Shown here in pieces: positions 11,281 to 23,647 of a stretch of 45,214 nt of DNA (position 1 is its first letter; each line of letters begins with the position of its first letter). The stretch lies in the NCBI GenBank assembly GCA_019429365.1, contig JAHYJD010000017.1, positions 1 to 45,214 of the forward strand. The letters are read 5' to 3'. The notes under the pieces are model-generated. The model was not told where the DNA came from. It ran no database searches and saw only the letters and a list, made by a program, of their open reading frames with translations. Position numbers and translations under genes: made by a program. This DNA is from Bacteroidales bacterium. Its GTDB lineage: Bacteria; Bacteroidota; Bacteroidia; Bacteroidales; UBA7960.

Positions 11281-12654
11281 GTGAAAAAAATCCTGATCAT
11301 ATGTTTGCTGGTCTTGGGTATTCCTTTGGTTTTTTCGGGAAAGGCCAGGGCACAGCATGCATCGCCCCCCCTGACCAGGATATTGGTTTTGTATGATGCT
11401 TCGCAAAGCATGCTTGCCCGCTGGCAAAGCGACACCCGCATGAATATTGCACGCAACGTACTTACCAACCTGCTCGACAGCCTTGAAACCGTCGACAATC
11501 TGGAAGTAGCACTAAGGGTGTTCGGACACCAGAAACGCTACCCCCCGCAAGACTGCAGCGACACCAGGCTGGAAGTGCCTTTCGGACCTGATGGCATCGG
11601 TAAAATCAGACAAAGGCTGCGCAGCATTCAGCCCCGTGGCACCACACCCATTGCCGCCTCTTTGCAAAGCGCTGCCGATGACTTTCCGCCCTGCGCCAAC
11701 TGTCGCAACATTATCATTTTAATTACCGACGGTTTGGAAGAGTGTGGAGGAGATCCCTGCGCCGTGTCACAGGACCTGCAGAAAAAGGGCATTTTCCTAA
11801 AACCCTATGTAATTGGCATTGGTCGCGACTTCAGCGATGCGTTCGATTGTGTAGGCCATTATTTCGATGCCTCCACCGAGTCGGGCTTCAAGGCAAGCCT
11901 AAACGTAATCATTTCGCAGGTGCTTGGCAAAACTAGCTCGCAAATTAATCTGCTGGACATGAGCGGCAGGCCTGCCGAGACCAATGTGGCGGTTTCATTT
12001 TTCGACCAGGATACCGGAAGACCGCTCGAAAGCATTATACACACCCTAAACCACCGAGGATTGCCCGACACGGTGTTCTTTCTAAACCCTTACATTAACT
12101 ACAAAATGGTGGTCCACACCACCCCAAGGGTCGAACTTCGGAATATAAAAATCCAATCGGGCAGACACAATGTGGTTGCTGTCGACGCACCTCAGGGCAT
12201 TATGAACGTAAGAACAGCAGGCCAGGTGTCGATGAACTACCAGGCCATTGTCAGAAAAGCCGGTGAGAATGAAACCCTTAAAATACAGCAACTTGGCAAT
12301 AACGAGAAATACCTGGTAGGCAAATACGACATTGAGGTGCTTTCATTGCCAAGAGTTGTGGTCAAAGACGTTGAAATCAGGCAAAGCCATACCACCAATG
12401 TGGAAATCCCGCAGCCGGGCATTGCCGTAATTAGACTTCAGGCACCCGGATTCGCCAATATCTTGCAGGAAACCGAACAAGGACTTACACACGTTTACTC
12501 GCTGCGCGAAACTGTGGCCAATGAAACCATTTACCTGCAGCCCGGAAGCTACAGGCTGGTTTACCGCTCAAGGGTTTCGAGCAATACGGCATTTTCTTCC
12601 GAAAGACGATTCAGAATAGAACCAGGTCAAACTGTAAGGGTCGATGTTAACTGA
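11281..12654 (+). CDS. Secreted vWA-domain protein between the transketolase halves
   Basis: 457 residues from a GTG start; no ATG lies near the signal peptide, so GTG at 11281 is the natural choice. The signal peptide is KKILIICLLVLGIPLVFSG ending around ARAQ (residues 22-25), so the protein is exported. Residues about 32-215 are a von Willebrand A domain with a complete MIDAS: DASQS (D39, S41, S43), GTTPIAASL and LITDGLEECGGDPC. It is cysteine-containing (CSDTRLEV, CANCRN), suggesting disulfides. The rest, about 225-457, is beta-rich and looks like two or three small Ig- or PEGA-like modules (TNVEIPQPGIAVIRL, IYLQPGSYRLVYRS). It likely binds a divalent metal and a protein partner in the periplasm or at the surface. 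A link to transketolase is not obvious; the location is the odd feature. Confidence 0.88.
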   Translation: MKKILIICLLVLGIPLVFSGKARAQHASPPLTRILVLYDASQSMLARWQSDTRMNIARNVLTNLLDSLETVDNLEVALRVFGHQKRYPPQDCSDTRLEVPFGPDGIGKIRQRLRSIQPRGTTPIAASLQSAADDFPPCANCRNIIILITDGLEECGGDPCAVSQDLQKKGIFLKPYVIGIGRDFSDAFDCVGHYFDASTESGFKASLNVIISQVLGKTSSQINLLDMSGRPAETNVAVSFFDQDTGRPLESIIHTLNHRGLPDTVFFLNPYINYKMVVHTTPRVELRNIKIQSGRHNVVAVDAPQGIMNVRTAGQVSMNYQAIVRKAGENETLKIQQLGNNEKYLVGKYDIEVLSLPRVVVKDVEIRQSHTTNVEIPQPGIAVIRLQAPGFANILQETEQGLTHVYSLRETVANETIYLQPGSYRLVYRSRVSSNTAFSSERRFRIEPGQTVRVDVN

Positions 12655-12681: not shown

Positions 12682-13638
12682 ATGAAGGAATACACTTACA
12701 CAGAAAAGAAAGATACCCGTTCAGGATTTGGAGCTGGCTTGCTGGAGGTTGGCCGCCGTAACCCCAACGTGGTGGCATTGTGTGCCGACCTTATCGGATC
12801 TCTAAAGATGAACGACTTCATTAAAGAATTTCCCGAAAGGTTCTTCCAGGTGGGCATTGCCGAAGCCAATATGATGGGCATAGCCGCCGGCCTCACCATT
12901 GGCGGAAAAATACCCTATACCGGGACTTTTGCCAACTTCAGCACTGGCAGGGTGTACGACCAGATACGCCAAAGCATTGCCTATTCTGAAAAGAACGTAA
13001 AAATTTGTGCTTCGCACGCAGGCCTGACCTTGGGGGAAGATGGGGCAACCCACCAGATACTGGAAGACGTTGGCATGATGAAAATGCTTCCTAACATGAC
13101 GGTGATCGTGCCATGCGATTACAATCAAACCAAGGCTGCCACCATTGCCATTGCCGATTACCAAGGACCGGTTTACCTGAGGTTTGGGCGTCCGGCAGTC
13201 CCCATTTTCACCCCGGCCGACGAGCCTTTTGTGATCGGTAAAGCCTTGACGCTCAACGAGGGGGCCGATGTAAGTATTTTAGCCTGTGGCCACTTGGTAT
13301 GGGAAGCCCTCGAAGCGGGCAAGGAACTTTACAAAGAAGGTATTAGCGCCGAAATTATAAATGTGCACACCATTAAACCTTTGGATAAAGAAACCATCTT
13401 AAATTCAATAAGAAAAACCGGTTGTGCCGTTACGGCAGAAGAGCATCAGGTGAATGGCGGCCTTGGCGAATCGGTTGCCCGCCTGCTGGCCGAAAACTAC
13501 CCGGCACCTTTGGAGCTGATTGGCGTAAACGATCGCTTTGGTGAAAGTGGAACCCCTGCACAACTGATGGAGAAATATGGGCTGAATGCGGCAAGTATTG
13601 TGAAAGCCGCCAGAAAAGTGTTGAACAGAAAGTCTTAG
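12682..13638 (+). CDS. Transketolase, C-terminal subunit
   Basis: 318 residues comprising the pyrimidine-binding domain and the C-terminal transketolase domain. Key motifs are VVALCADLIGSLKMNDF, FFQVGIAEANMMGIAAGL with the catalytic glutamate (E of GIAEAN), THQILEDVGMMKMLPNM, and the C-terminal domain from about residue 190 (DVSILACGHLVWEALEA, EEHQVNGGLGESVA). It completes the enzyme begun at 10404. The start at 12682 lies 27 bases after the vWA stop, and the sigma-factor gene follows after 12 bases. Sequence alone cannot exclude a 1-deoxyxylulose-5-phosphate synthase-like role, but the paired N-half at 10404 points to transketolase. Confidence 0.95.
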   Translation: MKEYTYTEKKDTRSGFGAGLLEVGRRNPNVVALCADLIGSLKMNDFIKEFPERFFQVGIAEANMMGIAAGLTIGGKIPYTGTFANFSTGRVYDQIRQSIAYSEKNVKICASHAGLTLGEDGATHQILEDVGMMKMLPNMTVIVPCDYNQTKAATIAIADYQGPVYLRFGRPAVPIFTPADEPFVIGKALTLNEGADVSILACGHLVWEALEAGKELYKEGISAEIINVHTIKPLDKETILNSIRKTGCAVTAEEHQVNGGLGESVARLLAENYPAPLELIGVNDRFGESGTPAQLMEKYGLNAASIVKAARKVLNRKS

Positions 13639-13650
13639 TAACGGTAAAGA

Positions 13651-14196
13651 ATGGTGCATTATTCTGACGAAGAATTGTTAAAGCGCTTCAGCCAGTCGGA
13701 TAATCCGGGGTATGCGTTTGATCTGATTGTCAGAAAGTACCAGGAACAGGTGTATTGGCACATACGAAGGCTGGTTATCGTTCATGAAGATGCCAGCGAC
13801 ATTGCACAGGATGTCTTTATCAAGGCCTGGAAAGCCCTGCCGGAATTCAGGGGCGATTCGGGCCTTTTCACTTGGCTTTACCGCATCGCCACCAACGAAG
13901 CCCTGTCTTTCCTTAAAAAAAAGAGAAAACGCTTTTTTTTGCCCATGGAGGATGTGGAGCAACAACTCAGCAATGCGCTCGAAACCGATGCCTGGTTCGA
14001 TGGAAATGATATTGAAAAGAAAGTTCAGAAAGCCATCCTGAGCCTGCCAGAAAAACAAAGGGTAGTGTTCAACCTGCGCTACTACGATGAAATGAAATAC
14101 GAAGAAATGTCGCGCATTCTGGATACTTCTGAAGGAGCCCTGAAGGCTTCCTACCACCATGCGGCAAAAAAAATTGAGAAAATTCTCACTTCCTGA
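13651..14196 (+). CDS. ECF-type RNA polymerase sigma factor
   Basis: 181 residues, with region 2 and region 4 only, as in extracytoplasmic-function sigma factors. Region 2 spans about residues 20-90, with FDLIVRKYQEQVYWHIRRLV, EDASDIAQDVFIKAWKAL and FTWLYRIATNEALSFLKKK. Region 4 spans about 125-178, with ILSLPEKQRVVFNLRYYDEM and the helix-turn-helix ILDTSEGALKASYHHAAKK. It begins only 12 bases after the transketolase C-subunit stop, so it is probably on the same message. The next gene encodes a likely membrane-bound partner. It may direct an envelope-stress regulon. A promoter inside the upstream gene cannot be excluded. Confidence 0.93.
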   Translation: MVHYSDEELLKRFSQSDNPGYAFDLIVRKYQEQVYWHIRRLVIVHEDASDIAQDVFIKAWKALPEFRGDSGLFTWLYRIATNEALSFLKKKRKRFFLPMEDVEQQLSNALETDAWFDGNDIEKKVQKAILSLPEKQRVVFNLRYYDEMKYEEMSRILDTSEGALKASYHHAAKKIEKILTS

Positions 14197-14233
14197 TTAA
14201 ACCATTGATATTTATTGCAATCTAAAAACCAAA

Positions 14234-14770
14234 ATGCCCAAAGGAATGACAAAAAATAAAGATGAAATAACCCGCGAATTACAAGAACTAGGCCTCAGCC
14301 GCCTTGCTTCGCAAATGAAAGAGGAGTCCGGCTTCGGAGTTCCCCAGGGGTATTTCGATGGCTTTTCCGCATCCGTAAGGCAAAAAATTGACGCCTCACG
14401 ACAGAAAGAGCCTGCTACCAAAGCCAGGTTTTTCAGCCTGCGTGCCGCTGTCAGCATGGCTGCCACCTTCCTGGTGCTCATCGGGTTGGGGGTTAGTTTT
14501 CTGCTTTTACGCGAGGGCAAAGAGGAGGGCTTGTTCAGCGATTTCGACGACCAGATTTTTGATGAATACTTTGCCCGTGCCACCGAATTCGACCGTGCCA
14601 TGTTTTACGACCTGATTCTCGACACTGAAGTGGCCGATTCAAAGTCAGCCCAGGCTGCCAGCCAGGCCGAGGAAGACTTTTTTGTTGAGTACCTGCTCGA
14701 TGCTGCACAATATTATGGCATTGAACCCACAGAACTGATCATACAAAACGGAAATGACAACAGGCACTAA
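14234..14770 (+). CDS. Single-pass membrane protein, putative anti-sigma partner
   Basis: 178 residues. The cytoplasmic N-terminal part (about 1-70) has the motif FGVPQGYFDGFSASVRQKI, a pattern I know from proteins encoded directly after ECF sigma factors in Bacteroidota. A single membrane helix follows at about 74-95 (AVSMAATFLVLIGLGVSFLL). The remainder is very acidic (FSDFDDQIFDEYF, FDRAMFYDLILDTEV) and would face the periplasm. Position after the sigma factor and topology suggest an anti-sigma factor, but no classic zinc anti-sigma motif (HxxxCxxC) is present, so the role is inferred. An alternative start is the ATG four codons in. The next gene begins 10 bases after its stop. Confidence 0.72.
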   Translation: MPKGMTKNKDEITRELQELGLSRLASQMKEESGFGVPQGYFDGFSASVRQKIDASRQKEPATKARFFSLRAAVSMAATFLVLIGLGVSFLLLREGKEEGLFSDFDDQIFDEYFARATEFDRAMFYDLILDTEVADSKSAQAASQAEEDFFVEYLLDAAQYYGIEPTELIIQNGNDNRH

Positions 14771-14780
14771 AAATATTAAA

Positions 14781-15251
14781 ATGAAACGATTATCATTGTT
14801 ACTGTTGCTTTTGTTATTTGTGCTGCCATCTTTTTTGGCGCATAACGGACAAGCCCTGGCGCAGGACTCCCGAATGGATGTAATCGAATCCAGGCGCATT
14901 GCCTTTCTTACGGAAAGAATGTCGCTGACGCCCGAAGAGGCCCGTGCATTCTGGCCCCTTTACAACGAATACAATAAAAATCGGGATGACCTTACCAACA
15001 GCCATCGCAATAAATGGCCCGATGCCAAGGTAGCCTCCATGGGCAACGACGAAGCCGGCAGGTATGCCGAAGACCTGGTGTTGCACATGGAACGCTCCGC
15101 AAACATAAAGAGGGAATACCACGAGAAACTGAAACGTATCCTCCCGGCAAAAAAAATTGCCCTGCTTTACGAAGCAGAGCGTGATTTTAACCGCATGCTT
15201 TTTCAGGAGGCCAGGCGCCGAAGCAGAGAAAGCAACGAGAGTGGACGTTAA
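14781..15251 (+). CDS. Exported Spy/CpxP-like helical protein
   Basis: 156 residues from the ATG at 14781. I prefer this over the one at 14754 because it lies after the upstream stop and begins the signal peptide directly (MKRLSLLLLLLLFVLPSFL, cleavage near ALAQ). The mature part is almost wholly helical and charged, with one LTPEEA motif ([20 protein letters not shown]) like the LTxxQ repeats of Spy, CpxP and the heavy-metal-sensor family. A basic C-terminal tail follows (RRRSRESNES). As the last gene after a sigma factor and its putative membrane partner, it may be a periplasmic chaperone or stress sensor of that module. The function is inferred from fold resemblance and position. Confidence 0.8.
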   Translation: MKRLSLLLLLLLFVLPSFLAHNGQALAQDSRMDVIESRRIAFLTERMSLTPEEARAFWPLYNEYNKNRDDLTNSHRNKWPDAKVASMGNDEAGRYAEDLVLHMERSANIKREYHEKLKRILPAKKIALLYEAERDFNRMLFQEARRRSRESNESGR

Positions 15252-15270
15252 AGGATTTTGCTTCCATTAA

Positions 15271-15295
15271 AATCCCGGTTCCCAGAGGGGGGATT
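15271..15295 (-). terminator. Weak terminator-like hairpin beyond batE
   Basis: AATCCC (15271-15276) pairs with GGGATT (15290-15295) around an inner CCC/GGG pair. Read on the minus strand it is followed by a short TTTT. It is the only candidate stop for the bat operon, but weak. Confidence 0.35.
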
Positions 15296-15313
15296 ACCCC
15301 TTATTCCCCTTTG

Positions 15314-15357
15314 CCTGCGTATAAACTAAATTTTTGGTTTGTGCGCAGGTTTTTTTT
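15314..15357 (+). terminator. Rho-independent terminator of the transketolase-sigma operon
   Basis: A 13-bp stem is formed by 15314-15326 (CCTGCGTATAAAC) and 15337-15349 (GTTTGTGCGCAGG), with two G-T wobbles if read as RNA, around a ten-base loop. It is followed by eight T. The T run overlaps the stop codon of the convergent batE gene (15356-15358). Confidence 0.85.
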
Positions 15358-16114
15358 ATATGACTTCCAGTGCATATTTCTTAACCCAGCCAACATTGCC
15401 ATTGGCAAGCCTTACTTCGTACCATTCGCCCAGTTCGCTGGTAATGCGGGCCTTGCTGCCTTCATGAATCACAAAAAGGTCGGGACTGGCTTCGCCAGGC
15501 GAACTTTTTGCCGTGGCCCTCGGCACCATTACAATAGCGTCTTTGCGCTTGTATGTATTTGAATACTGTGCACGGACTGCAGCAAGGCTAACCACCATTG
15601 CCACTGCAAATATCAGCGAAACACCAAAAGCGGTTTTTTTCATGCCCCGTGTCCGGGAAAAGAAAAAGGCACCCATGGCCGCAAGAAATCCCAGCAGTAA
15701 AAAAATAATCATCCACGACCAGCCATCCACGCTGAGTTTACTGTAAAAGTTTTTCCACCACCTTTCATAAAATATCAACGGAACAGGATTGATGCGATCG
15801 ATGGTTCGGGTGCGGGCCACTTCCAGGTTGAATAGCGAATTTTCATCAGAAGGCTTGAGCTTCAGCGCACGCTCATAATTCAGAATGGCAGCACCAAAAA
15901 GATTTTCCTTAAAATATGCATTACCCAGATTGTAATATAGCTCATGAGATTCAAGTTCTTGTTCAATAACCGACTCGTAAAGCTCAATGGCATAAGAATA
16001 TTGTCCGTTCACATAAGCCTCATTGGCCTGCCGGATAAGTTCCTCAGGAGAAGCCTTCAAAAGGAGAGGGGATAAGAAAAGCAATCCGGACAACCACCAT
16101 ACCAGTTTTTTCAT
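15356..16114 (-). CDS. batE: BatE: TPR and SH3 membrane protein
   Basis: 252 residues. The signal peptide or first helix is KKLVWWLSGLLFLSPLLL. Two to three TPR units lie at about 25-105 (IRQANEAYVNGQYSYAIELY, LYYNLGNAYFKENLFGAAIL, ALKLKPSDENSLFNL). Two membrane helices lie at about 131-150 (WMIIFLLLGFLAAMGAFFF) and 160-180. A C-terminal bacterial SH3-type domain spans about 193-252 (VMVPRATAKSSP, EGSKARITSELGEWYEVRL, GNVGWVKKYALEVI). This matches BatE of the Bacteroides aerotolerance operon. It is the last gene of the operon, starting four bases after the batD stop. It probably acts in a periplasmic membrane complex with the other Bat proteins; the molecular role of the system is not established. 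Confidence 0.9.
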   Translation of the reverse strand: MKKLVWWLSGLLFLSPLLLKASPEELIRQANEAYVNGQYSYAIELYESVIEQELESHELYYNLGNAYFKENLFGAAILNYERALKLKPSDENSLFNLEVARTRTIDRINPVPLIFYERWWKNFYSKLSVDGWSWMIIFLLLGFLAAMGAFFFSRTRGMKKTAFGVSLIFAVAMVVSLAAVRAQYSNTYKRKDAIVMVPRATAKSSPGEASPDLFVIHEGSKARITSELGEWYEVRLANGNVGWVKKYALEVI

Positions 16115-16118
16115 ATTG

Positions 16119-17966
16119 CTAAAACTTTTTGTACTTCAATTCCTTTTCGAGGGTAACAATGGTATCGAGAGCCCGTTGATAGGTTTCGTCCATACGGGTT
16201 TGAGGCGAACCCGGGGCGAACCTGGCAAACTCGCATTCATTCAGCGTTTCAAGAAACTTGCCAGCCATTTCTTCCGGTACTCCCTTTTGCCCAAAGACTT
16301 CCGAAACCTGCTCCTTGTTCAACCTGGAAACCGGTATGCTGAGTTTGTCGGAAAGGTAACCCCACAGCGCCCTGAAAATCTCATCGTAAAACTCAGCGCT
16401 ATTGCCGCTTTTAAGAAAAGCGCCCGCCTTTTTCAGGCGTTTCCGGGCCATTTTCTGCGCTTTGCGGTTGCGCAGTAAGGCGGTATTGCTCTGCAAGCGA
16501 ATATGCCTCCTCCAATAGACCAAAAAGAAGGCAAACAAGAAAACGGGCCCAATAAGCAAGAACCAGAATAGCTTGCTGCGAAAGAACAAACTGCCTTTGG
16601 GCTGAAGGTAAAAAATAGTGTTATTGATAAAACGTATGTCGGATGCAAGGTACTGCACGTCTTCCTGCCTGGCGGCTCCAGAACCTTCACCAGTGGCTGT
16701 ATCGGTACCAGTAACCGTAAGAGAATACGCCGGGCTCGAGCGCGTCACATAGCGACTGGCGGCGGGGTCAAAAAAGCTGAACTGTATGGGAGGGATCTCA
16801 AACGTGCCTCCTGTGCGCGGTATAAGCAGGTACTCATACTGCCGGCTGCCCGACACTCCGCTGGCCGAAATGCGAATATTGTCTGTGATGTTTGGATCGA
16901 AGGCTTCCAGGTTGGCAGGAAATTGGATCTCGGGCTTTTCGAGCATACGAAGGTTTCCGGAACCATTAATGGTAAGCGTCAGTGTCACAGGTTCATTCAC
17001 ATTGACTTCCAGTGGACTAAGCCCGGTGTTCAGTTCAAAGCTGCCCACCATTCCCCTGAATGAGGGCGGACGGTTTTGTGCGGGCAGCGCCCTTACGTTT
17101 ACACGCACCTGGTTAGAACGCAGGTTTCGCTCCACATTCTGAAATCCGCCAAAAGGCGAACCGCCAAAAAACTCATCGAGCAGGCTCCCGCTGCGGCGGG
17201 GCGCACTGACCCTGACCAGGGTTTGCATATCGAGTGGCTCTATGCTCAGTTCACCGGACCTTTGCGGGAAAAGCACTACCTGTCGTATGGTAGCTACATT
17301 GTAACGCTGGCCATCAATAACTTCTTCGGTAACCTGTGGCTGGCCCGATGGGGTTACATCCTCGGCCCAAAAGCCTTGGTAGGCTGGTAGTTTTTCAATG
17401 CTGTACTGCGACACCACCACCCGGGTATAAAGCTTGTATGTTAAGGTAACGGCCTGTCCCTGGTAAGGATTAGCGTTGCTTACCACCGCCCTAAGATAGA
17501 TATCGCGGTCGCTCACACCCTGCGCGGCAGGAGCTTGTTGCTGGCCTGGAGCTGGAGCTGAAGGCTGGGCGCCCCGGGCTGCCTGACCAGAAACCCTGAT
17601 GGAAAGCTCGTTGGAGCTAAAATTCCTTCCTTCAACGGTAATGGTTGCTCCAGGAATGTTAAAGGAACCTTCTCTGGTAGCTTCAAGAATATAGGTAAAG
17701 GAAAAATTTTCTGAATGGGTTACCTGTCCGTTAATGATTTGTGTGGACGAGCTTGAAGACTGGTTAGGACCCGAAAGCACACGGAACTCGCCAAAAGCGG
17801 GTCCGTTGAAACTGGCTGGCCGCTTATTGGCGGAATAGACCACCCGAAATCGCTCACCCACCGCGACCTGCGAGGGAGCTGAAGCAGTGAAGCTTGGCTC
17901 ACTGGCCAAAACGGGCAGCCACATGAACAGGCTAAAGAGCCAAATAATCAAGGTCTTCTTTTTCAT
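16119..17966 (-). CDS. batD: BatD: oxygen-tolerance-type membrane protein
   Basis: 615 residues from the ATG at 17966, which starts the signal peptide (MKKKTLIIWLFSLFMW). The upstream ATG at 17984 would add six residues and overlap batC. Most of the protein is periplasmic and beta-rich, with repeated Ig-like modules (SFTASAPSQVAVGERFRVVY, YLRAVVSNANPYQGQAVTLT, LSPLEVNVNEPVTLTLTING), the BatD/DUF11-like pattern. A Pro/Ala/Gln-rich linker lies near residue 135-150 (QPSAPAPGQQQAPA). A membrane helix sits at about 468-488 (FWFLLIGPVFLFAFFLVYW), followed by a cytoplasmic helical tail (RKAQKMARKRLKKAG) that resembles the C-terminal part of the protein at 20775. It is likely a scaffold for BatA and BatB. 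Confidence 0.92.
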   Translation of the reverse strand: MKKKTLIIWLFSLFMWLPVLASEPSFTASAPSQVAVGERFRVVYSANKRPASFNGPAFGEFRVLSGPNQSSSSSTQIINGQVTHSENFSFTYILEATREGSFNIPGATITVEGRNFSSNELSIRVSGQAARGAQPSAPAPGQQQAPAAQGVSDRDIYLRAVVSNANPYQGQAVTLTYKLYTRVVVSQYSIEKLPAYQGFWAEDVTPSGQPQVTEEVIDGQRYNVATIRQVVLFPQRSGELSIEPLDMQTLVRVSAPRRSGSLLDEFFGGSPFGGFQNVERNLRSNQVRVNVRALPAQNRPPSFRGMVGSFELNTGLSPLEVNVNEPVTLTLTINGSGNLRMLEKPEIQFPANLEAFDPNITDNIRISASGVSGSRQYEYLLIPRTGGTFEIPPIQFSFFDPAASRYVTRSSPAYSLTVTGTDTATGEGSGAARQEDVQYLASDIRFINNTIFYLQPKGSLFFRSKLFWFLLIGPVFLFAFFLVYWRRHIRLQSNTALLRNRKAQKMARKRLKKAGAFLKSGNSAEFYDEIFRALWGYLSDKLSIPVSRLNKEQVSEVFGQKGVPEEMAGKFLETLNECEFARFAPGSPQTRMDETYQRALDTIVTLEKELKYKKF

Positions 17967-17977
17967 GGGTACTGCAT

Positions 17978-18667
17978 TTACCATTCTCTTTCCTGACGAA
18001 CAGGCGCTCGCTGCGTCTGGTCACGCTTCAGGTCTTCCTGCACGTTCTGTTCCTTCTGGTTCAGCGCATCCAGAATCCTTTCGGCATCCTGGGGCGAAAT
18101 CTGATCAGGACGGGGCTGCTGCTGTGGCTGTTGCTGCTGATCCTCCGACTGATCCTGGTCCTGATTCTTATTCTTATTTTGTTCCTGTTCCTGGTCTTGA
18201 TCATCGTCTCCTTCGCCTTCCGGGTCCTGCGGGGGCTGTTCCTGCAAAAGCCGCATGGCATAGGCCAGGTTGTGACGGGTCTGTTCATCATCGGGATTTA
18301 TGCGCAATGCATTCTTGTAGGCATCTACACTTTCGGCATATTTTTGCGATTGTATATGCGTATTTCCCAGGTTGTGATATGCGAAGGCTTTTTCGCGCTC
18401 GCCGGGGGCAAACTGCGAAAGCCCCCCAAATATTTCGGCCGCCTCGTCGAAACGCCCTTGCCGATACAAGGCATTTCCCAGGTTGAACATCCCTTTAATG
18501 TTTTGCGGGTTTTCTTCGAGCGACTGCCGGTAGCGTATTTCAGCATCATTAAACTTTTCGTCCTGGTAAAGTTTGTTGCCCTGCCGCAAATTGCGTCGCT
18601 CCTGGGCTTGTACCATTACAGGCAGCACCAAAATCATGACCAGAATAACCAGCGTTAACCGTTTCAT
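17978..18667 (-). CDS. batC: BatC: TPR protein with acidic/Gln-rich tail
   Basis: 229 residues from the ATG at 18667, the start of a signal peptide (MKRLTLVILVMILVLPVMVQ, cleavage near AQE). An ATG at 18721 in the same frame would overlap batB and precede the signal. TPR units cover about 22-125 (NLRQGNKLYQDEKFNDAEI, GMFNLGNALYRQGRFDEAAE, AFAYHNLGNTHIQSQKYAES). A striking low-complexity tract follows (about 145-180) of Asp, Gln, Glu, Asn and Lys, then a conserved-looking end (LKRDQTQRAPVRQEREW). BatC is expected to pair with BatB and BatD in the periplasm. The tract varies in length between relatives and is probably a flexible linker. Confidence 0.9.
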   Translation of the reverse strand: MKRLTLVILVMILVLPVMVQAQERRNLRQGNKLYQDEKFNDAEIRYRQSLEENPQNIKGMFNLGNALYRQGRFDEAAEIFGGLSQFAPGEREKAFAYHNLGNTHIQSQKYAESVDAYKNALRINPDDEQTRHNLAYAMRLLQEQPPQDPEGEGDDDQDQEQEQNKNKNQDQDQSEDQQQQPQQQPRPDQISPQDAERILDALNQKEQNVQEDLKRDQTQRAPVRQEREW

Positions 18668-18690
18668 ATTTTTTAAAGTAATGCTAAAAA

Positions 18691-19725
18691 TCAACCAAAC
18701 AATTTGATCTTTTCCAGCCACTTGTTCTTTCTTTCAAAAATAAAAATCTCCAGCAAAAGAAACAAGAGTGCCAGTGCCACAAAATAATGATAGCGGCTCT
18801 GGTAGTCGGCAAATACCATGGTTTCAAAGGTATCCTTTTCCACCTTCCTTATTTCATCGAGGATGCTGTTGAGGCCCATATCGGCCCCTGTGCCATGCCT
18901 GAAAACCCCTCCCGTGGCTTCTGCAATGGCCCTAAGGGTGACTTCGTCGTAACGCGACACCACAGTATTTCCCTGGTTGTCGCGCAAAAAACCCGAAAGC
19001 TGGTTGTTGCGGTACACCGGTATTGGCGCTCCGGCCTGGGTACCAATACCCACAGTATGAATGGTTACACCGCTCTGGGCTGCAAGGCGGGCCTGCACCA
19101 AGGGGTCGTCAAGATGGTTTTCGCCATCGCTGATAATGATTACCACTTTGTTCTGAAGATCTTCGCCCGAAAAGGAGGCCATGGCCCGTTCAATGGCACT
19201 GCCAATGGCGGTTCCCTGAACCGATACTGAATTGGTGGTTACCGTTCGTAACATCATTTTTGCGGCAGAATGGTCGGTGGTGACAGGCACCTGGGTAATG
19301 GCATGGCCAGCAAACACCACCAGTCCGACCCTGTCATTTTCGAGCCGATCTATCAGCCTGGAAACGGCCATTTTTGCACGCTCCAACCTGTTTGGGCGTA
19401 TATCTTCGGCAAGCATGCTGCGACTCACATCCAAGGCAATGATCACATCTATCCCTTCGCGCCTGGCTTCCTGCATGCGGCTTCCCACCAACGGGTTGGC
19501 CAGGGCAAGCACCAGCATGGAAAAAGCCACCAGCAACAACATGAATTTTATCCATGGCCTGCGCACGGAGCGCCAAGGCATCAGCGAGCGTACAACATGG
19601 TCTTGCCCAAACCGCTTAAGGGCCCTTCGGCGAAAATGCCACGAAATCCAGAAAAGCACCAGCAGCAGCGGAATGAGCGCCAGAAGATAAAAATACTGTG
19701 GGTTTTCAAATCTTAATATTTCCAT
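18691..19725 (-). CDS. batB: BatB: membrane vWA-domain protein
   Basis: 344 residues. Two membrane helices lie near the N-terminus (YFYLLALIPLLLVLFWIS and FMLLLVAFSMLVLALANPL), a vWA domain at about 90-290, and a C-terminal helix (YHYFVALALLFLLLEIFIF). The MIDAS is complete: ALDVSRSM (DxSxS), VQGTAIGSAIERAM and IIISDGENHLDD. It closely resembles BatA from the next gene upstream, consistent with an old duplication. It starts 18 bases after the batA stop. It likely forms metal-dependent contacts within a Bat complex at the periplasmic face or in the membrane. Confidence 0.93.
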   Translation of the reverse strand: MEILRFENPQYFYLLALIPLLLVLFWISWHFRRRALKRFGQDHVVRSLMPWRSVRRPWIKFMLLLVAFSMLVLALANPLVGSRMQEARREGIDVIIALDVSRSMLAEDIRPNRLERAKMAVSRLIDRLENDRVGLVVFAGHAITQVPVTTDHSAAKMMLRTVTTNSVSVQGTAIGSAIERAMASFSGEDLQNKVVIIISDGENHLDDPLVQARLAAQSGVTIHTVGIGTQAGAPIPVYRNNQLSGFLRDNQGNTVVSRYDEVTLRAIAEATGGVFRHGTGADMGLNSILDEIRKVEKDTFETMVFADYQSRYHYFVALALLFLLLEIFIFERKNKWLEKIKLFG

Positions 19726-19743
19726 AAACCAGGACTCCTTTTA

Positions 19744-20733
19744 TCAGGGATTGGTTTTAAGCCAGGTGTTTCTCAAAACAAGTTCAAGCCCCAGCAATAA
19801 AAACGCCAGCAACACCAGGGGCAGGTATTCATCGGTTTTGCGCGTGTACTCGGTCACATCAATCCGGGTTCGCTCCAGCTGGTCAATCTCTTCATAAATT
19901 TCCTGGAGTTTGCTTTGGCTGTCGGCCCAGTAATAGCTGCCGCCGGTCATTTCGGCCATTTGCTGAAGCAGTTCTTCATCCACCGGTATTTCTACCTGTC
20001 GGTACTGCACACCCAGCGGGGTCTGAAAAGGGTAGGGGACACTGCCCTTGCTGCCAACCCCAATGGTATAAACCCTAATGCCATACACACTGGCAATCTC
20101 GGCTGCAGTAAGCGGGTCAATTACGCCAGCATTGTTGATACCATCTGTGAGCAGAATAACTACTTTGCTAATGGCCTGACTTTCGCGCAAGCGGTTAAGT
20201 GAAGTGGCCAGGCCATCGCCAATGGCTGTGCCATCCTCAACCATACCTGTTTTTACACCCGATGCCAGCTCCTTAAGCAGCACATGGTCTGTCGTTAAGG
20301 GACAAAGGGTAAAACTTTCGCCACTGAAAACGGTCATGCCCAGGCGGTCTGTCGGGCGCATTTCAATAAATTCGAGGGCAGTTTGCTTGGCGGCTTCCAG
20401 GCGGTTGGGTCTGAAATCCTCAGCCAGCATCGAGCCCGAAATATCCAGTGCAATCATTATGTCGATACCTTCTACGCTCACATCCTGCGAACGAGAAGAA
20501 GACTGTGGCCGGGCCAGCGCCACAATGAGAAGGGCCATTACCAGCATACGCAGCAGAAAAGGCAAATGTATCAACCGAAGCCTGAAACTTTTTCTGACTC
20601 CTTTTACAAAAGCCGAATGCGCAAATCGTATGTCGGAGCTGTAATCGCGCTGCTTCCATATATACCATGCCACAAGTAGCGGAATAACCGCCAGCAGCAG
20701 CAGAAAAGGCTTATATGCAAAAGTTATATCCAC
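19744..20733 (-). CDS. batA: BatA: membrane vWA-domain protein
   Basis: 329 residues. N-terminal helices are FLLLLAVIPLLVAWYIW and LPFLLRMLVMALLIVALARP. The vWA domain spans about 85-285 and has MIDAS elements ALDISGSM, MVEDGTAIGDGLATSL and ILLTDGINNAGVID. A C-terminal membrane helix (LPLVLLAFLLLGLELVL) completes the standard BatA topology. An RxRPxxSS-like junction (ALARPQSSSRSQ) after the second helix is typical. It precedes batB and lies 41 bases after the DUF4381-like gene, the largest gap in the operon. Confidence 0.94.
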   Translation of the reverse strand: MDITFAYKPFLLLLAVIPLLVAWYIWKQRDYSSDIRFAHSAFVKGVRKSFRLRLIHLPFLLRMLVMALLIVALARPQSSSRSQDVSVEGIDIMIALDISGSMLAEDFRPNRLEAAKQTALEFIEMRPTDRLGMTVFSGESFTLCPLTTDHVLLKELASGVKTGMVEDGTAIGDGLATSLNRLRESQAISKVVILLTDGINNAGVIDPLTAAEIASVYGIRVYTIGVGSKGSVPYPFQTPLGVQYRQVEIPVDEELLQQMAEMTGGSYYWADSQSKLQEIYEEIDQLERTRIDVTEYTRKTDEYLPLVLLAFLLLGLELVLRNTWLKTNP

Positions 20734-20774
20734 AAGATCCTCTGATTCATTTAAATACCTCTTTTTACTCTAAT

Positions 20775-21776
20775 CTATGGTTGTTCGCCGGTTTTCCCCT
20801 TGTTTCCCTCTTTTGAAGGCGGCGGGATATTGCGTTTTACAAACTCCAGCGCCAGGTCCATACATTCTTCATTCTGCTGCGCCTGGGGCTGGTAGCGGGC
20901 AAACTTCACCAGGTCGGCGAGTTCCAGAATATACCTGAGCCATTCAAGTTGTTCTTCCTCCTTCAGTTGGGCCGGCATCGCCTGAAAAATCTCAGCCGAG
21001 GTCATTTCAAGTGCAATAATTCCGAAACGTTTTTCAAGATACATTCGCAAAATGAAAGTCAATTCGCTGTGATAAAGCTTTACTTTACCATTCTGCCATA
21101 ACTTTTTATTTTTCAAACTTTCAAGGCTGGATATGGCTGCAATATGAGCAGGAATTTCGGGCTTCTCCCAAATACTTTCTGCTGCGGGTCTGGCTTTGCG
21201 CTTTTTGAAGTATCGCCAAAAAAGCCAGGCAAGCAGTGCCAACACAAAACCGGCCAGCAACCAGGGAAACACTTCGGCCAGGGTAACAGGAACCTTGAAA
21301 ATCGGTTTTATGTCATAAGGAACGGCATCTTCAGCCAGTTCAGGAGCCTGCACTTGTAACAACAGGGGTTCTGATTCGACAAGCAATGAGTCCCCATTTA
21401 TGGCCAGCAAAAATGGTGCAGGGGCAATGGCAATGAAACCAGGCTCCCAGGCAGTGATAAGCAGTTGCTGCGCCAGGGTATATTGCTGTCCATCGGCCGA
21501 AAGGGTATCAATACGACCGAAGGAAAGGACTTCAATTTGTTTTGCCAGACTATCTGAAAAGGCCGGCCAATGCACTGTACTTTGTGCCGGTGCATCCAAT
21601 TCGATAAAAAAGCCGGCCCGCTGCCCTATTTTTATGGAGTCGGGCTCCAGCCTGACCCTGACTTGCGGAGAACTGGCTGAAACGAATCCTGCCTGCACGA
21701 AAGCAAATACCAGAACAAGCTTGAAAGCCCTGGTCAGCAAAAGCGGATAATATTTTAACTTATTAATATTCGGCAT
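20775..21776 (-). CDS. DUF4381/BatD-like single-pass membrane protein
   Basis: 333 residues. A signal segment (AFKLVLVFAFVQAGFVSAS) is followed by a periplasmic beta-rich domain at about 35-165 (VRVRLEPDSIKIGQRAGFFI, GFIAIAPAPFLLAINGDSLL), a membrane helix at about 178-197 (LLAGFVLALLAWLFWRYF) and a cytoplasmic helical domain to the end (LYHSELTFILRMYLEKRFG, MTSAEIFQAMPAQLKEE, LVKFARYQPQAQ). The tail pattern resembles that of BatD and of DUF4381 proteins, which sit in MoxR operons of many bacteria. It lies six bases after the DUF58 gene. Probably a Bat-complex component. The C-terminal Pro/Lys-rich stretch looks disordered. Confidence 0.82.
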   Translation of the reverse strand: MPNINKLKYYPLLLTRAFKLVLVFAFVQAGFVSASSPQVRVRLEPDSIKIGQRAGFFIELDAPAQSTVHWPAFSDSLAKQIEVLSFGRIDTLSADGQQYTLAQQLLITAWEPGFIAIAPAPFLLAINGDSLLVESEPLLLQVQAPELAEDAVPYDIKPIFKVPVTLAEVFPWLLAGFVLALLAWLFWRYFKKRKARPAAESIWEKPEIPAHIAAISSLESLKNKKLWQNGKVKLYHSELTFILRMYLEKRFGIIALEMTSAEIFQAMPAQLKEEEQLEWLRYILELADLVKFARYQPQAQQNEECMDLALEFVKRNIPPPSKEGNKGKTGEQP

Positions 21777-21782
21777 GTTATC

Positions 21783-22652
21783 CTAATTACTCCTTTTTCT
21801 GAAAAGATTCATCAGCGGTGGAACATAATCGCGATTGGTAGGAATGCTCACCAAGTCGACACCTGCTTTGGTGAAAGTGGTTTTCAGAAATCTTTCCTGC
21901 TCTTGGTTCCACTGCTTCACTTTTTCCTGCACCTCTTTGCTAGAAGTGTCTATCCAGTATGTTTTTCCGGTTTCTGCGTCGCGGAATTTCATAATTCCCA
22001 TGGCCGGCAACTCCTGTTCTCGCTGATCGAAAACCCTAATGCAAACCAGGTCGTGCTTTTTACTTACAATCGACAAAGCATCTTCAAAGCCCCGATTGTT
22101 GAAGTCGGAAATCAGAAAAGCAATCGAACGTTTTTTGATGACATTGCGCAGGTATTTCAGTGCCTGTCCAATGTCGGTACCTTTGTTTTCGGGCCTGAAG
22201 TCGATGAGTTCCCTGATTATGCGCAGGATATGGCTGCTGCCTTTTTTTGGCGGGATAAACTTTTCGATGCGATCGCTGAAAAAGATAACCCCTACCTTAT
22301 CATTATTATTGATGGCCGAAAAGGCCAGCACCCCCGCAATTTCGGTGATCATTTCTTCTTTTAGCATACCAACAGCGCCAAACTCATTGGAACCGCTCAC
22401 ATCGATCAGCAGCATCACGGTAAGCTCACGTTCCTCCTCAAACACCTTCACAAAGGGATGATTAAACCGGGCCGTTACGTTCCAGTCGATGCTGCGAATG
22501 TCGTCGCCATACTGATACTCCCTCACTTCGGTAAAAGCCATGCCACGCCCCTTAAAGGCACTGTGATAATGCCCCGAAAATATCTGGTTGGAAAGACCTT
22601 TGGTTTTGATCTCGATCTTCCTGACCTTCTTTAAGAGATCGGTGGTTTCCAT
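21783..22652 (-). CDS. DUF58/vWA-like protein of the MoxR operon
   Basis: 289 residues from ATG 22652, 11 bases after the moxR stop. An in-frame ATG at 22775 lies inside moxR and would add 41 basic, low-quality residues, so I reject it. The DUF58 core is visible: SGHYHSAFKGRGMAFTEVRE, YQYGDDIRSIDWNVTARFN, then a vWA-type domain with LLIDVSGSNEFG and GTDIGQALKYLRNVIKKRS, and AFLISDFNNRGFEDAL. There is no membrane segment, so this is a cytoplasmic or membrane-associated partner of MoxR. MoxR/DUF58 pairs are thought to act in assembly or metal insertion of other complexes; the target here would be the Bat proteins. Confidence 0.93.
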   Translation of the reverse strand: METTDLLKKVRKIEIKTKGLSNQIFSGHYHSAFKGRGMAFTEVREYQYGDDIRSIDWNVTARFNHPFVKVFEEERELTVMLLIDVSGSNEFGAVGMLKEEMITEIAGVLAFSAINNNDKVGVIFFSDRIEKFIPPKKGSSHILRIIRELIDFRPENKGTDIGQALKYLRNVIKKRSIAFLISDFNNRGFEDALSIVSKKHDLVCIRVFDQREQELPAMGIMKFRDAETGKTYWIDTSSKEVQEKVKQWNQEQERFLKTTFTKAGVDLVSIPTNRDYVPPLMNLFRKRSN

Positions 22653-22663
22653 TTCAGCAAAGA

Positions 22664-23647
22664 TTAAGGAACTTCTACCGTGTTGAGAATCTCGTTGATA
22701 ATGTCTTCGGTGGTAATATTTTCTGCTTCGGCTTCGTAAGTAAGCCCTATGCGGTGGCGCAGCACATCGGCGCAAACGGCACGCACATCCTCCGGAATTA
22801 CGTAACCGCGCCGTTTAATAAAAGCAAAAGCCTTGCTGGCAAGTGCCAGGTTGATGCTTGCCCTGGGCGATCCGCCATAGCTGATCAGTGGTCCGAATTT
22901 CTGCAGTTTGAAATCGGCCGGATAGCGTGTGGCAAACACTATGTCGGTGATATAATTCTCAATTTTTTCATCAAGGTACACATCGCGCACCACGTTACGG
23001 GCTTTGGTAATGTCTGCTGGTTCGAGCACGGCATGGGTTTGCGGAAACTCCTGCAACATGTTGCGGCGCATAATAAGTTTCTCTTCCTCGCGCGAGGGGT
23101 AGCCGATCATGACCTTAAGCATAAAACGGTCCACCTGGGCTTCGGGCAGGGGATAGGTGCCCTCCTGCTCCAGGGGGTTTTCCGTAGCCAGCACCAGGAA
23201 AGGTTCATCCAGGGTAAAACTATGGTCGCCAATGGTGACCTGCCGCTCCTGCATGGCTTCGAGCAGCGCGCTCTGTACCTTGGCAGGTGCACGGTTGATC
23301 TCATCGGCAAGGATGAAATTGGCAAAAACCGGTCCCTTGCGCACCACAAACTCTTCACGCTTCTGGCTGTAAATCATAGTACCGATAAGGTCGGCAGGCA
23401 GCAAATCGGGGGTAAACTGAATGCGGCTGAAACGCGCCTTAATGGTGTTTGCCAGCGATTTTATTGCCAGGGTCTTTGCCAGCCCGGGCACGCCCTCCAG
23501 CAAGATATGACCATTGGCCAGCAGGCCAATCAGCAGGCGCTCTACCATGTATTTCTGACCTACGATCACCTTGTTCATTTCCATGGTCAGAATGTCGACA
23601 AAAGCACTCTCCTGCTGTATCCGTTCGTTCAGTTCCTTTATGTCCAT
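22664..23647 (-). CDS. moxR: MoxR-family AAA+ ATPase
   Basis: 327 residues, the MoxR/RavA-type length. Walker A is in LLEGVPGLAKTLAIKSLA (near residue 52), Walker B and the following motif in NFILADEINRAPAKVQSALLE, then MQERQVTIGDHSFTLDEPF, sensor 1 ATENPLEQEGTYPLPEAQVD and an arginine-finger stretch (RFMLKVMIGYPSREEE). The C-terminal lid (ISYGGSPRASINLALASKAF) is characteristic. As first gene of the operon it probably drives ATP-dependent assembly or activation of the vWA proteins encoded behind it. The -7-type box TATTTTTG lies upstream at 23676-23683. Confidence 0.95.
   Translation of the reverse strand: MDIKELNERIQQESAFVDILTMEMNKVIVGQKYMVERLLIGLLANGHILLEGVPGLAKTLAIKSLANTIKARFSRIQFTPDLLPADLIGTMIYSQKREEFVVRKGPVFANFILADEINRAPAKVQSALLEAMQERQVTIGDHSFTLDEPFLVLATENPLEQEGTYPLPEAQVDRFMLKVMIGYPSREEEKLIMRRNMLQEFPQTHAVLEPADITKARNVVRDVYLDEKIENYITDIVFATRYPADFKLQKFGPLISYGGSPRASINLALASKAFAFIKRRGYVIPEDVRAVCADVLRHRIGLTYEAEAENITTEDIINEILNTVEVP

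What the first reader, a model, noticed from the sequence alone, without database searches (positions are those of the whole stretch)
13639..15357. ECF sigma factor, membrane partner and Spy-like protein attached to the transketolase operon
The sigma-factor ORF starts 12 bases after transketolase and is followed by a VPxGYF single-pass protein with an acidic periplasmic part and an exported LTxEEA helical protein, then one terminator. This looks like a compact envelope-stress module whose expression is coupled to central carbon metabolism. The partner lacks the classic zinc anti-sigma motif, so it may represent a poorly described anti-sigma type.
Basis: partly seen in the sequence, partly recalled or inferred. 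Interest (0 to 1): 0.55.

Follow-up and report, generated by a model that had tools for sequence, protein, structure and literature searches.

The report
Zinc-free anti-sigma stress switch in Bacteroidota
Next to a transketolase gene sits a three-gene envelope-stress switch (a sigma factor, a membrane inhibitor that has lost the usual zinc domain, and a Spy-like periplasmic protein) that appears to switch itself on from its own promoters and is found across most of a major bacterial class.

Summary
In detail: ECF sigma (13651-14196), VPxGYF single-pass protein (14234-14770) and Spy-like protein (14793-15251), 12 bases after transketolase, closed by a terminator. The triad is not local: the partner's profile hits 97 of 105 sampled genomes of the class, and sigma>partner>Spy holds in 50 of 50 class loci that I fetched. 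The partner is best explained as an anti-sigma factor that lost its zinc domain: in sister classes the same locus encodes a partner with a zf-HC2 domain followed by the same VP..YF helix, which aligns to the end of RsiW's domain; AlphaFold gives exactly this segment high confidence next to sigma. In some families it is repeated up to seven times. A sigmaE-like promoter (TTAAACCTTT, 18-nt spacing, GTCTAA) sits between sigma and partner and, in the window's family, inside the transketolase frame (13 of 14 loci; 0.14 expected). The motif also precedes Spy/ZraP, outer-membrane, efflux and peptidase genes. The envelope-stress and odd-anti-sigma readings hold; coupling to carbon metabolism does not. 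A sigma/anti-sigma/spy operon (cirYZ-spy) was reported in Phocaeicola vulgatus in 2026; homology could not be tested. Nothing here was tested at the bench.

The parts
13373..13401 (+). Predicted ECF promoter P1 (TTAAAC, 18 nt, TCTTA) inside the TktC reading frame, about 250 nt upstream of sigma
   Evidence: 1 mismatch to pattern; same place in 13 of 14 own-family loci, 0.14 expected from synonymous recoding; PWM 23.3 bits
13651..14196 (+). ECF sigma factor, 181 aa
   Evidence: homologue L017 modelled and aligned to SigW 5wuq, Z 18.6
14197..14225 (+). Predicted ECF promoter P2 (TTAAAC 14197-14202, 18 nt, TCTAA 14221-14225), starts right after the sigma stop codon, ends 8 nt before the partner's ATG
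   Evidence: pattern present in 106 of 139 distinct loci
14234..14770 (+). VPxGYF protein, 178 aa, predicted zinc-free membrane anti-sigma factor
14333..14392 (+). Codons of residues 34-53 (around VPQGYF and the following helix), predicted sigma-binding segment, equivalent of helix 4 of zinc anti-sigma domains
   Evidence: (homologue)
14444..14509 (+). Predicted transmembrane segment, residues 71-92
   Evidence: sequence by eye; helix in the homologue's model
14793..15251 (+). Exported all-helical Spy/CpxP/CnrX-like protein, 152 aa (14754 is an alternative start)
15313..15350 (+). Intrinsic terminator-like hairpin closing the operon
12682..13638 (+). Transketolase C half (TktC); neighbour that carries P1 in its coding sequence

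Best explanation
A sigma/anti-sigma/chaperone switch for envelope stress. At rest the membrane protein holds the ECF sigma factor through a short cytoplasmic segment (PF-VP-x-GYF plus an amphipathic helix) just before its single membrane helix; this is the surviving helix 4 of a zinc anti-sigma domain whose other helices were lost, probably in the ancestor of the class. A periplasmic signal, sensed by the acidic tail, perhaps with the Spy-like protein, frees sigma. Sigma then reads TTAAACCTTT-N14-GTCTAA-like promoters: P1 (in this family inside the transketolase gene) raises sigma, P2 raises anti-sigma and Spy (negative feedback plus chaperone), and a scattered regulon supplies Spy/ZraP-type proteins, outer-membrane barrels, efflux parts and secreted peptidases. 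Shown by computation: gene order, shared ancestry with zinc anti-sigma proteins, the conserved promoter motif and its enrichment, signal-peptide-like genes downstream of it. Predicted: docking on sigma. Inferred only: that this sigma reads the motif, the time of the zinc loss, the signal, the release step, the role of Spy.
For: Triad order: sigma before partner in 21 of 21 readable own-family loci and Spy after it in 22 of 22; 50 of 50 class loci fetched; 48 of 48 order stretches, 42 distinct loci. Partner profile in 97 of 105 own-class genomes of the sample and 142 of 198 own-order genomes. Sister-class partners at the same locus hit zf-HC2 over cut-off in 4 of 4 scanned; 25 of 29 further-searched loci are sig>partner>Spy triads and 17 of the 25 keep HxxxCxxC. 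Profile comparison zinc-type versus VPxGYF: probability 97.8, E 1e-12, over VP..YF to the membrane helix. Zinc-type profile hits RsiW (5wuq) at 4.7e-6 along nearly its whole chain, VPenYFsnLlpri on RsiW's APADFTANVMAKL. AlphaFold of a natural sigma-partner read-through (L017): pLDDT 91/97/90 over the VPEGYF segment against 53-71 in the rest of the cytoplasmic part, with single bridge residues at 116 and 225. Promoter P2 in 106 of 139 loci; a site of 12 bits or more upstream of sigma in 74 of 136 versus 1 of 136 on the reverse strand. Motif: 83 exact sites at 18-nt spacing versus 8 at 19 nt in the same 39 genomes; 33 of 55 sites read precede a signal-peptide-like ORF versus 0 of 8. Outside evidence: deleting cirZ in P. 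vulgatus raises cirY, spy and two neighbours (PMC13114119).
Against: No binding or expression data. No PAE values or coordinates were available, and a fused, tethered chain favours contacts; only one fusion was folded, with no negative control. The own genome has 14 Sigma70_r2 matches, so another ECF could read the motif. The tool's reversed-pattern control is less favourable: 36 sites against 83 at 18 nt, and 51 against 8 at 19 nt, so base-order effects are large; only one other spacing was tested. The signal-peptide call was my own crude rule, and the off-spacing control has only 8 sites. Loci are related, so counts are not independent events. 33 of 139 loci lack P2 by my pattern (f22 and f24 loci among them); 62 of 136 lack a site of 12 bits upstream of sigma. 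Sister-class partners may differ in function.
Confidence: 0.82

Rival explanations
1. Metal-sensing CnrYXH-type system: the Spy-like protein is a CnrX-like metal sensor that controls a CnrY-like anti-sigma.
For: Same three parts; CnrX entries are among the best rows (Z 6.0-7.2), with ZraP 6.4, CpxP 6.1, NccX 5.9; orthologues hit Metal_resist in 8 of 56.
Against: In 56 orthologues no column outside the start region holds His, Cys or Met in more than 18 (His). The top VIA row is another protein (3g6i, 7.3), and Z under 13 may be only a common helical arrangement. Gene order differs (recalled: cnrYXH). The partner's ancestry points to class I zinc domains.
Confidence: 0.07
2. Metabolic coupling: the module is mainly a passenger of the tkt operon, so sigma level reports central carbon flux.
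For: 12-base gap, no terminator listed between; tktC upstream in 14 of 19 readable own-family loci and in families f20, f21, f29.
Against: Absent within the stretch read in f18, f19, f22, f23, f24, f27; sigma-type promoters P1 and P2. P1 lying inside tktC would explain why the linkage is kept without any metabolic logic.
Confidence: 0.1
3. The partner is not an inhibitor but a membrane tether or activator of sigma.
For: Only one short segment is kept; helix 1 is not placed with confidence; no inhibitor assay exists for this family.
Against: Related loci have a canonical zinc anti-sigma domain at the same place; the modelled sigma best matches sigmas bound by RsiW, NepR and CnrY, though a chain of SigG1 (7qh5, Z 15.6) follows closely and this may be AlphaFold's default shape; cirZ deletion raises sigma output in a look-alike operon.
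Confidence: 0.06
4. The 18-nt-spaced motif is read mainly by another ECF of the cell, and the triad is one target among many.
For: 14 Sigma70_r2 matches in the genome; a genome without a detected partner also has sites (G021: no match, 2 sites).
Against: The motif is placed at the triad itself in 106 of 139 loci and upstream of sigma in 11 of 25 sister-class triads (0 on the reverse strand), as expected of autoregulation.
Confidence: 0.15

Closest known systems
CirY/CirZ-Spy operon of Phocaeicola vulgatus (PMC13114119, 2026)
   Same: ECF sigma, anti-sigma and co-transcribed spy in that order; anti-sigma deletion raises sigma and spy; the paper notes a second spy gene downstream of another sigma/anti-sigma pair
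   Different: No sequence was at hand, so homology was not tested; what I read (section 28 in full, abstract and found passages) gives no VPxGYF motif, no zinc loss, no sigma-specific promoter sequence, and distribution only across P. vulgatus strains
RsiW and other class I (zinc) anti-sigma factors
   Same: Helix-4 segment aligns to the VP..YF helix; single-pass membrane protein beside an ECF sigma
   Different: Window protein has no Cys, no HxxxCxxC, no zf-HC2; only the helix-4 part is left, repeated in some families
CnrY/CnrX/CnrH (class II anti-sigma plus periplasmic sensor)
   Same: Short zinc-free cytoplasmic anti-sigma part; periplasmic helical third protein of similar general fold
   Different: Ancestry of the anti-sigma points elsewhere; no metal ligands conserved in the third protein
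Dma/Reo dual-membrane anti-sigma factors with ECF21 (PMC13088901, passages read)
   Same: Bacteroidota anti-sigma factors for ECF sigmas
   Different: Those carry a long tether and a C-terminal beta-barrel; the window protein is 178 aa with no room for a barrel
Spy / CpxP / ZraP (LTXXQ, Metal_resist families)
   Same: All-helical exported protein; LTXXQ hits in 19 of 56 and Metal_resist in 8 of 56 orthologues at E<=0.01
   Different: The window's own protein has no hit; encoded with a sigma/anti-sigma pair, whereas E. coli spy is under two-component systems (stated in PMC13114119)

Membership tests
ECF sigma factor | sigma-70 regions 2 and 4 without further sigma domains | tested here: met
   Sigma70_r2 61.3 bits and Sigma70_r4_2 52.5 bits, both over cut-off, 181 aa, no other sigma domain hit
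Class I (zinc) anti-sigma factor | HxxxCxxC / zf-HC2 domain | tested here: not met
   no Cys in the protein; 0 of 22 own-family-centred members hit any Pfam family at E<=0.01
Class I (zinc) anti-sigma factor | helix-4 segment before the membrane helix | tested here: met
   profile match to zinc-type partners and through them to RsiW; this speaks for ancestry, not membership
[quoted passage not shown]
   one helix placed with high confidence, the first helix at 53-66 pLDDT; no CnrY hit by profile
Spy/CpxP/ZraP/CnrX-like periplasmic protein | hooked all-helical fold and LTXXQ motifs | tested here: inconclusive
   pLDDT 94.5; CnrX/ZraP/CpxP/NccX among the best rows but Z only 5.9-7.2; LTXXQ in 19 of 56 orthologues, window protein none
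Autoregulated ECF system | ECF-type promoter at its own operon | tested here: met
   by sequence; that this sigma uses it was not testable here
Dma/Reo anti-sigma factors | C-terminal outer-membrane beta-barrel | tested here: not met
   178 aa; only 86 residues follow the membrane segment

The most novel reading that the evidence does not exclude
A zinc anti-sigma domain was stripped in the ancestor of the class to one sigma-binding segment of about 20 residues, and in several families this segment was copied in tandem up to seven times, making a multivalent membrane anti-sigma that can hold several sigma molecules or set the threshold of release by its repeat number. In some lineages its positive-feedback promoter is written inside the transketolase gene, which locks the two genes together.
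Probability: 0.3. Interest if true: 0.78.

Novelty: new variant of a known kind. Interest (0 to 1): 0.62.

Why it matters
A survey (PMC7406223, passages read) found class I anti-sigma domains beside only 6% of Bacteroidetes ECFs and left open what controls the rest. A class-wide zinc-free anti-sigma with no Pfam or NCBIfam match in the members scanned answers this for one core ECF and gives an exact promoter motif to map its regulon in laboratory Flavobacterium or Bacteroides strains. A repeat-built sigma-binding region and a promoter kept inside a metabolic gene would be new design features.

Tried and rejected
One search used a spacer one base too long by my miscount; it gave 10 sites (one mismatch allowed) and the exact form was then used as the off-spacing control. 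The pattern with one mismatch in the own genome alone (21 sites, reversed-pattern control 16) was too weak to claim enrichment; the exact pattern in 39 genomes was used instead. The reversed-pattern control gave 36 against 83 real sites at 18 nt and 51 against 8 at 19 nt. Alignments A2 and A4 for the fold misplaced partner-only rows and were dropped for A5. Foldseek alone gave no match under E 0.001 for the Spy-like protein. PDB profile searches with the VPxGYF family and with the Spy family found nothing credible. Rfam: no match in the window at gathering scores. Mapping to P. vulgatus cirYZ by neighbours did not settle which of two paralogous triads it is, if either. A Riemerella sigma factor paper (PMC6557517, found passages) could not be tied to this family. 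That the motif, the zinc loss and the repeats are not in print rests on searches in the open-licence library only; the main ECF classification paper (10.1093/nar/gkaa1229) was not held.

Full report
WHAT IS THERE. Searches confirm the three ORFs and the 12-base gap after TktC. Sigma is a plain ECF factor. The partner (178 aa, no Cys) and the Spy-like protein have no Pfam or NCBIfam match over cut-off. A strong hairpin with a T run ends the operon at 15313-15350. The window lies in a 3.57-Mb genome in 224 contigs; the nearest named record found is a Bacteroidales MAG, UBA4814, partner 84% identical.

HOW WIDE IT IS. The partner as a single sequence is found in 22 of 39 genomes searched, own genome included, one copy each. 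In those 22 loci Spy follows the partner in 22, and sigma precedes it in 21 of 21 that can be read (L016 starts at the contig edge). A profile of 22 partners (A1) hits 112 of 392 phylum genomes; counted from the table, which is sorted by kinship, this is 97 of 105 in the own class (own genome, 5 of the order, 91 of the class; 8 without a match). I fetched 60 of these hit loci, chosen by me to span families: all 50 of the own class read sigma>partner>Spy on one strand; of 10 outside it 6 do, 3 have sigma and partner only (one with 1.2 kb between), 1 is a lone hit in an unrelated-looking protein. The tool's own 30 short loci, partly the same genomes, are also triads in 30 of 30. In the own order a second profile (A7) hits 142 of 198 genomes; 48 of 48 stretches examined, 42 distinct loci, are triads (a 49th stretch was an empty 200-base piece). 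Three genomes hold two triads (G557, G603, G604).

TRANSKETOLASE. TktC lies upstream in 14 of 19 readable own-family loci (three more end at the contig edge) and in 18 of 50 class loci within 1.1 kb: f20 4 of 6, f21 11 of 14, f29 3 of 3; f28 has it 3.9-4.9 kb away in 2 of 2; the other families not at all in the stretch read. So linkage is recurrent over several families but not part of the module.

WHAT THE PARTNER IS. In families f48 and f32 outside the class, the protein between the related sigma and Spy carries a zinc anti-sigma domain: zf-HC2 over cut-off in 4 of 4, an anti-sigma NCBIfam model at 3.5e-11 for L111 (below that model's cut-off). The same proteins then show VPxxYFxxL and the membrane helix. 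A profile of these four finds 153 of 392 phylum genomes, many of them other anti-sigma-like proteins and some VPxGYF proteins. Of its 30 loci one (L243) is a VPxGYF locus; 25 of the other 29 are sig>partner>Spy triads; 17 of the 25 have HxxxCxxC and 16 match my YF..LLP.V pattern. Profile-profile comparison joins zinc-type and VPxGYF proteins at 97.8% probability, E 1e-12, from before VP..YF to past the membrane helix (97.5% for A7). The zinc-type profile matches RsiW over residues 5-73 of 80 (E 4.7e-6), with VPenYFsnLlpri on APADFTANVMAKL. That helix 4 of such domains binds sigma2 is from PMC7406223 (passages read). So the VPxGYF segment is the helix-4 part of a class I anti-sigma domain that lost helices 1-3. 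Two f38 proteins have only about 30 cytoplasmic residues, little more than this segment (L110, L113).

REPEATS. In f20 and f21 the P..YF motif occurs 3-7 and 2-5 times in one protein; elsewhere in the class 1-2, and 0 by this pattern in 3 of 4 f22 proteins. Each copy sits in a unit of a few tens of residues. This was not modelled.

STRUCTURE. In some loci sigma and partner lie in one frame with one stop between. The natural read-through of L017 (own family) was folded with 58 rows, 23 of them fused. Mean pLDDT per 10 residues: sigma 91-98 with one block of 81; end of sigma, leader and first partner helix (181-220) 53-69; residues 221-250 with VPEGYF 91/97/90; 251-260 71; membrane helix 91-94; tail 35-68. 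DSSP marks single bridge residues 116 (sigma linker) and 225 (Phe before VPEGYF), which I read as a pair. The sigma part aligns along its length with SigW-RsiW (5wuq, Z 18.6, rmsd 2.6, 158 residues), RpoE-NepR (5uxx, 16.5), CnrH-CnrY (4cxf, 16.2) and SigG1 (7qh5, 15.6); RNA-polymerase-bound ECF chains come lower, several with rmsd over 20. No PAE or coordinates were at hand. The window's Spy-like protein folds at 94.5 pLDDT, all helix; VIA rows include CnrX (Z up to 7.2, rmsd 4.6, 98 aligned), ZraP 6.4, CpxP 6.1, NccX 5.9, but the top row is 3g6i (7.3) and unrelated bundles stand at similar Z. No conserved metal ligands.

PROMOTERS. Between sigma and partner most class loci share TTAAAC-(C/T)TTT and, after exactly 18 nt, TCTAA or a variant; the -35 often overlaps the sigma stop. 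The spacing equals that of E. coli sigmaE promoters (recalled). The pattern is present in 106 of 139 loci distinct by sigma sequence. Exact TTAAACY-N16-RTCTAA occurs 83 times in 39 genomes, against 8 with one more base (summed by me; own family 54 against 4). The tool's reversed-pattern counts are 36 and 51 in the same two searches, so the enrichment over that control is only 2.3-fold. A second site lies in TktC at the codons for HTIKPLD (window 13373-13401). In own-family linked loci it is found in 13 of 14; random synonymous recoding with each gene's own codon use gives 0.14 expected, and none of 200000 draws reached 13 (the loci are related, two pairs closely). In other linked loci it is 4 of 27, one locus counted twice. 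Scanned with a matrix from the 106 sites, 74 of 136 loci score 12 bits or more in the 500 bases before sigma, against 1 of 136 on the reverse strand (L025 and L030, which have the tktC site, were missed because the scanned stretch did not reach it). In 7 of 8 f23 loci the site starts 29-160 nt before sigma. In sister-class triads it is 11 of 25 against 0.

REGULON. I read 55 distinct exact sites of the 83: the own genome's, the tool's 30 loci and 20 more that I picked from the own family. 45 have an ATG ORF of 80 aa or more starting 3-120 nt downstream, 9 of them partners, 33 signal-peptide-like by my crude rule; the off-spacing control gives 2 of 8 and 0 of 8 (Fisher p 0.0024 and 0.0002). Nine proteins chosen by me, by Pfam: two CarboxypepD_reg/TonB-plug barrels, two Metal_resist/LTXXQ proteins (Spy/ZraP type), HlyD_D23 efflux, OEP, peptidases M28 and M14, amidohydrolase.

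KNOWN WORK. P. vulgatus cirY, cirZ and spy are induced 143-, 132- and 155-fold in colitis, and cirZ deletion raises cirY, spy and two neighbours (PMC13114119, section 28 read in full). It is the nearest tested system. Dma/Reo factors have a different architecture (passages). The B. thetaiotaomicron network paper and the F. psychrophilum promoter paper, passages only, show no such motif in what I saw.

VERDICT. A class-wide, self-regulated envelope-stress switch, with zinc-type relatives elsewhere in the phylum, whose anti-sigma factor keeps only the helix-4 segment: a new variant of a known kind. Function is predicted, not shown.

Noticed in passing
window 11281-12654: A VWA-domain gene is inserted between the N and C halves of transketolase, also in the close relative L009; in L022 and L029 a VWA homologue lies directly upstream of sigma instead of TktC.
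   Followed up: partly
L278-L283 (G557, G603, G604): Three Bacteroidales genomes hold two triads; in G557 and G604 one has P2 and the other has overlapping sigma and partner genes without P2, in G603 neither shows P2.
   Followed up: partly
L110, L113: Minimal partners of about 106-111 aa whose cytoplasmic part is little more than one VPEGYF helix.
   Followed up: no
L142 (G000:C199:3538 and 4362): Two exact promoter motifs about 0.8 kb apart on opposite strands near an outer-membrane beta-barrel-like gene; a similar pair lies in G002:C84 (L189).
   Followed up: no
window 15356-22775, minus strand: Adjacent genes look like a Bat aerotolerance operon (TPR, VWA and DUF58-like proteins; names recalled from the translations).
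   Followed up: no
L010: Record titled Sphingomonadales MAG carries the full triad and looks like a mislabelled Bacteroidota contig.
   Followed up: no
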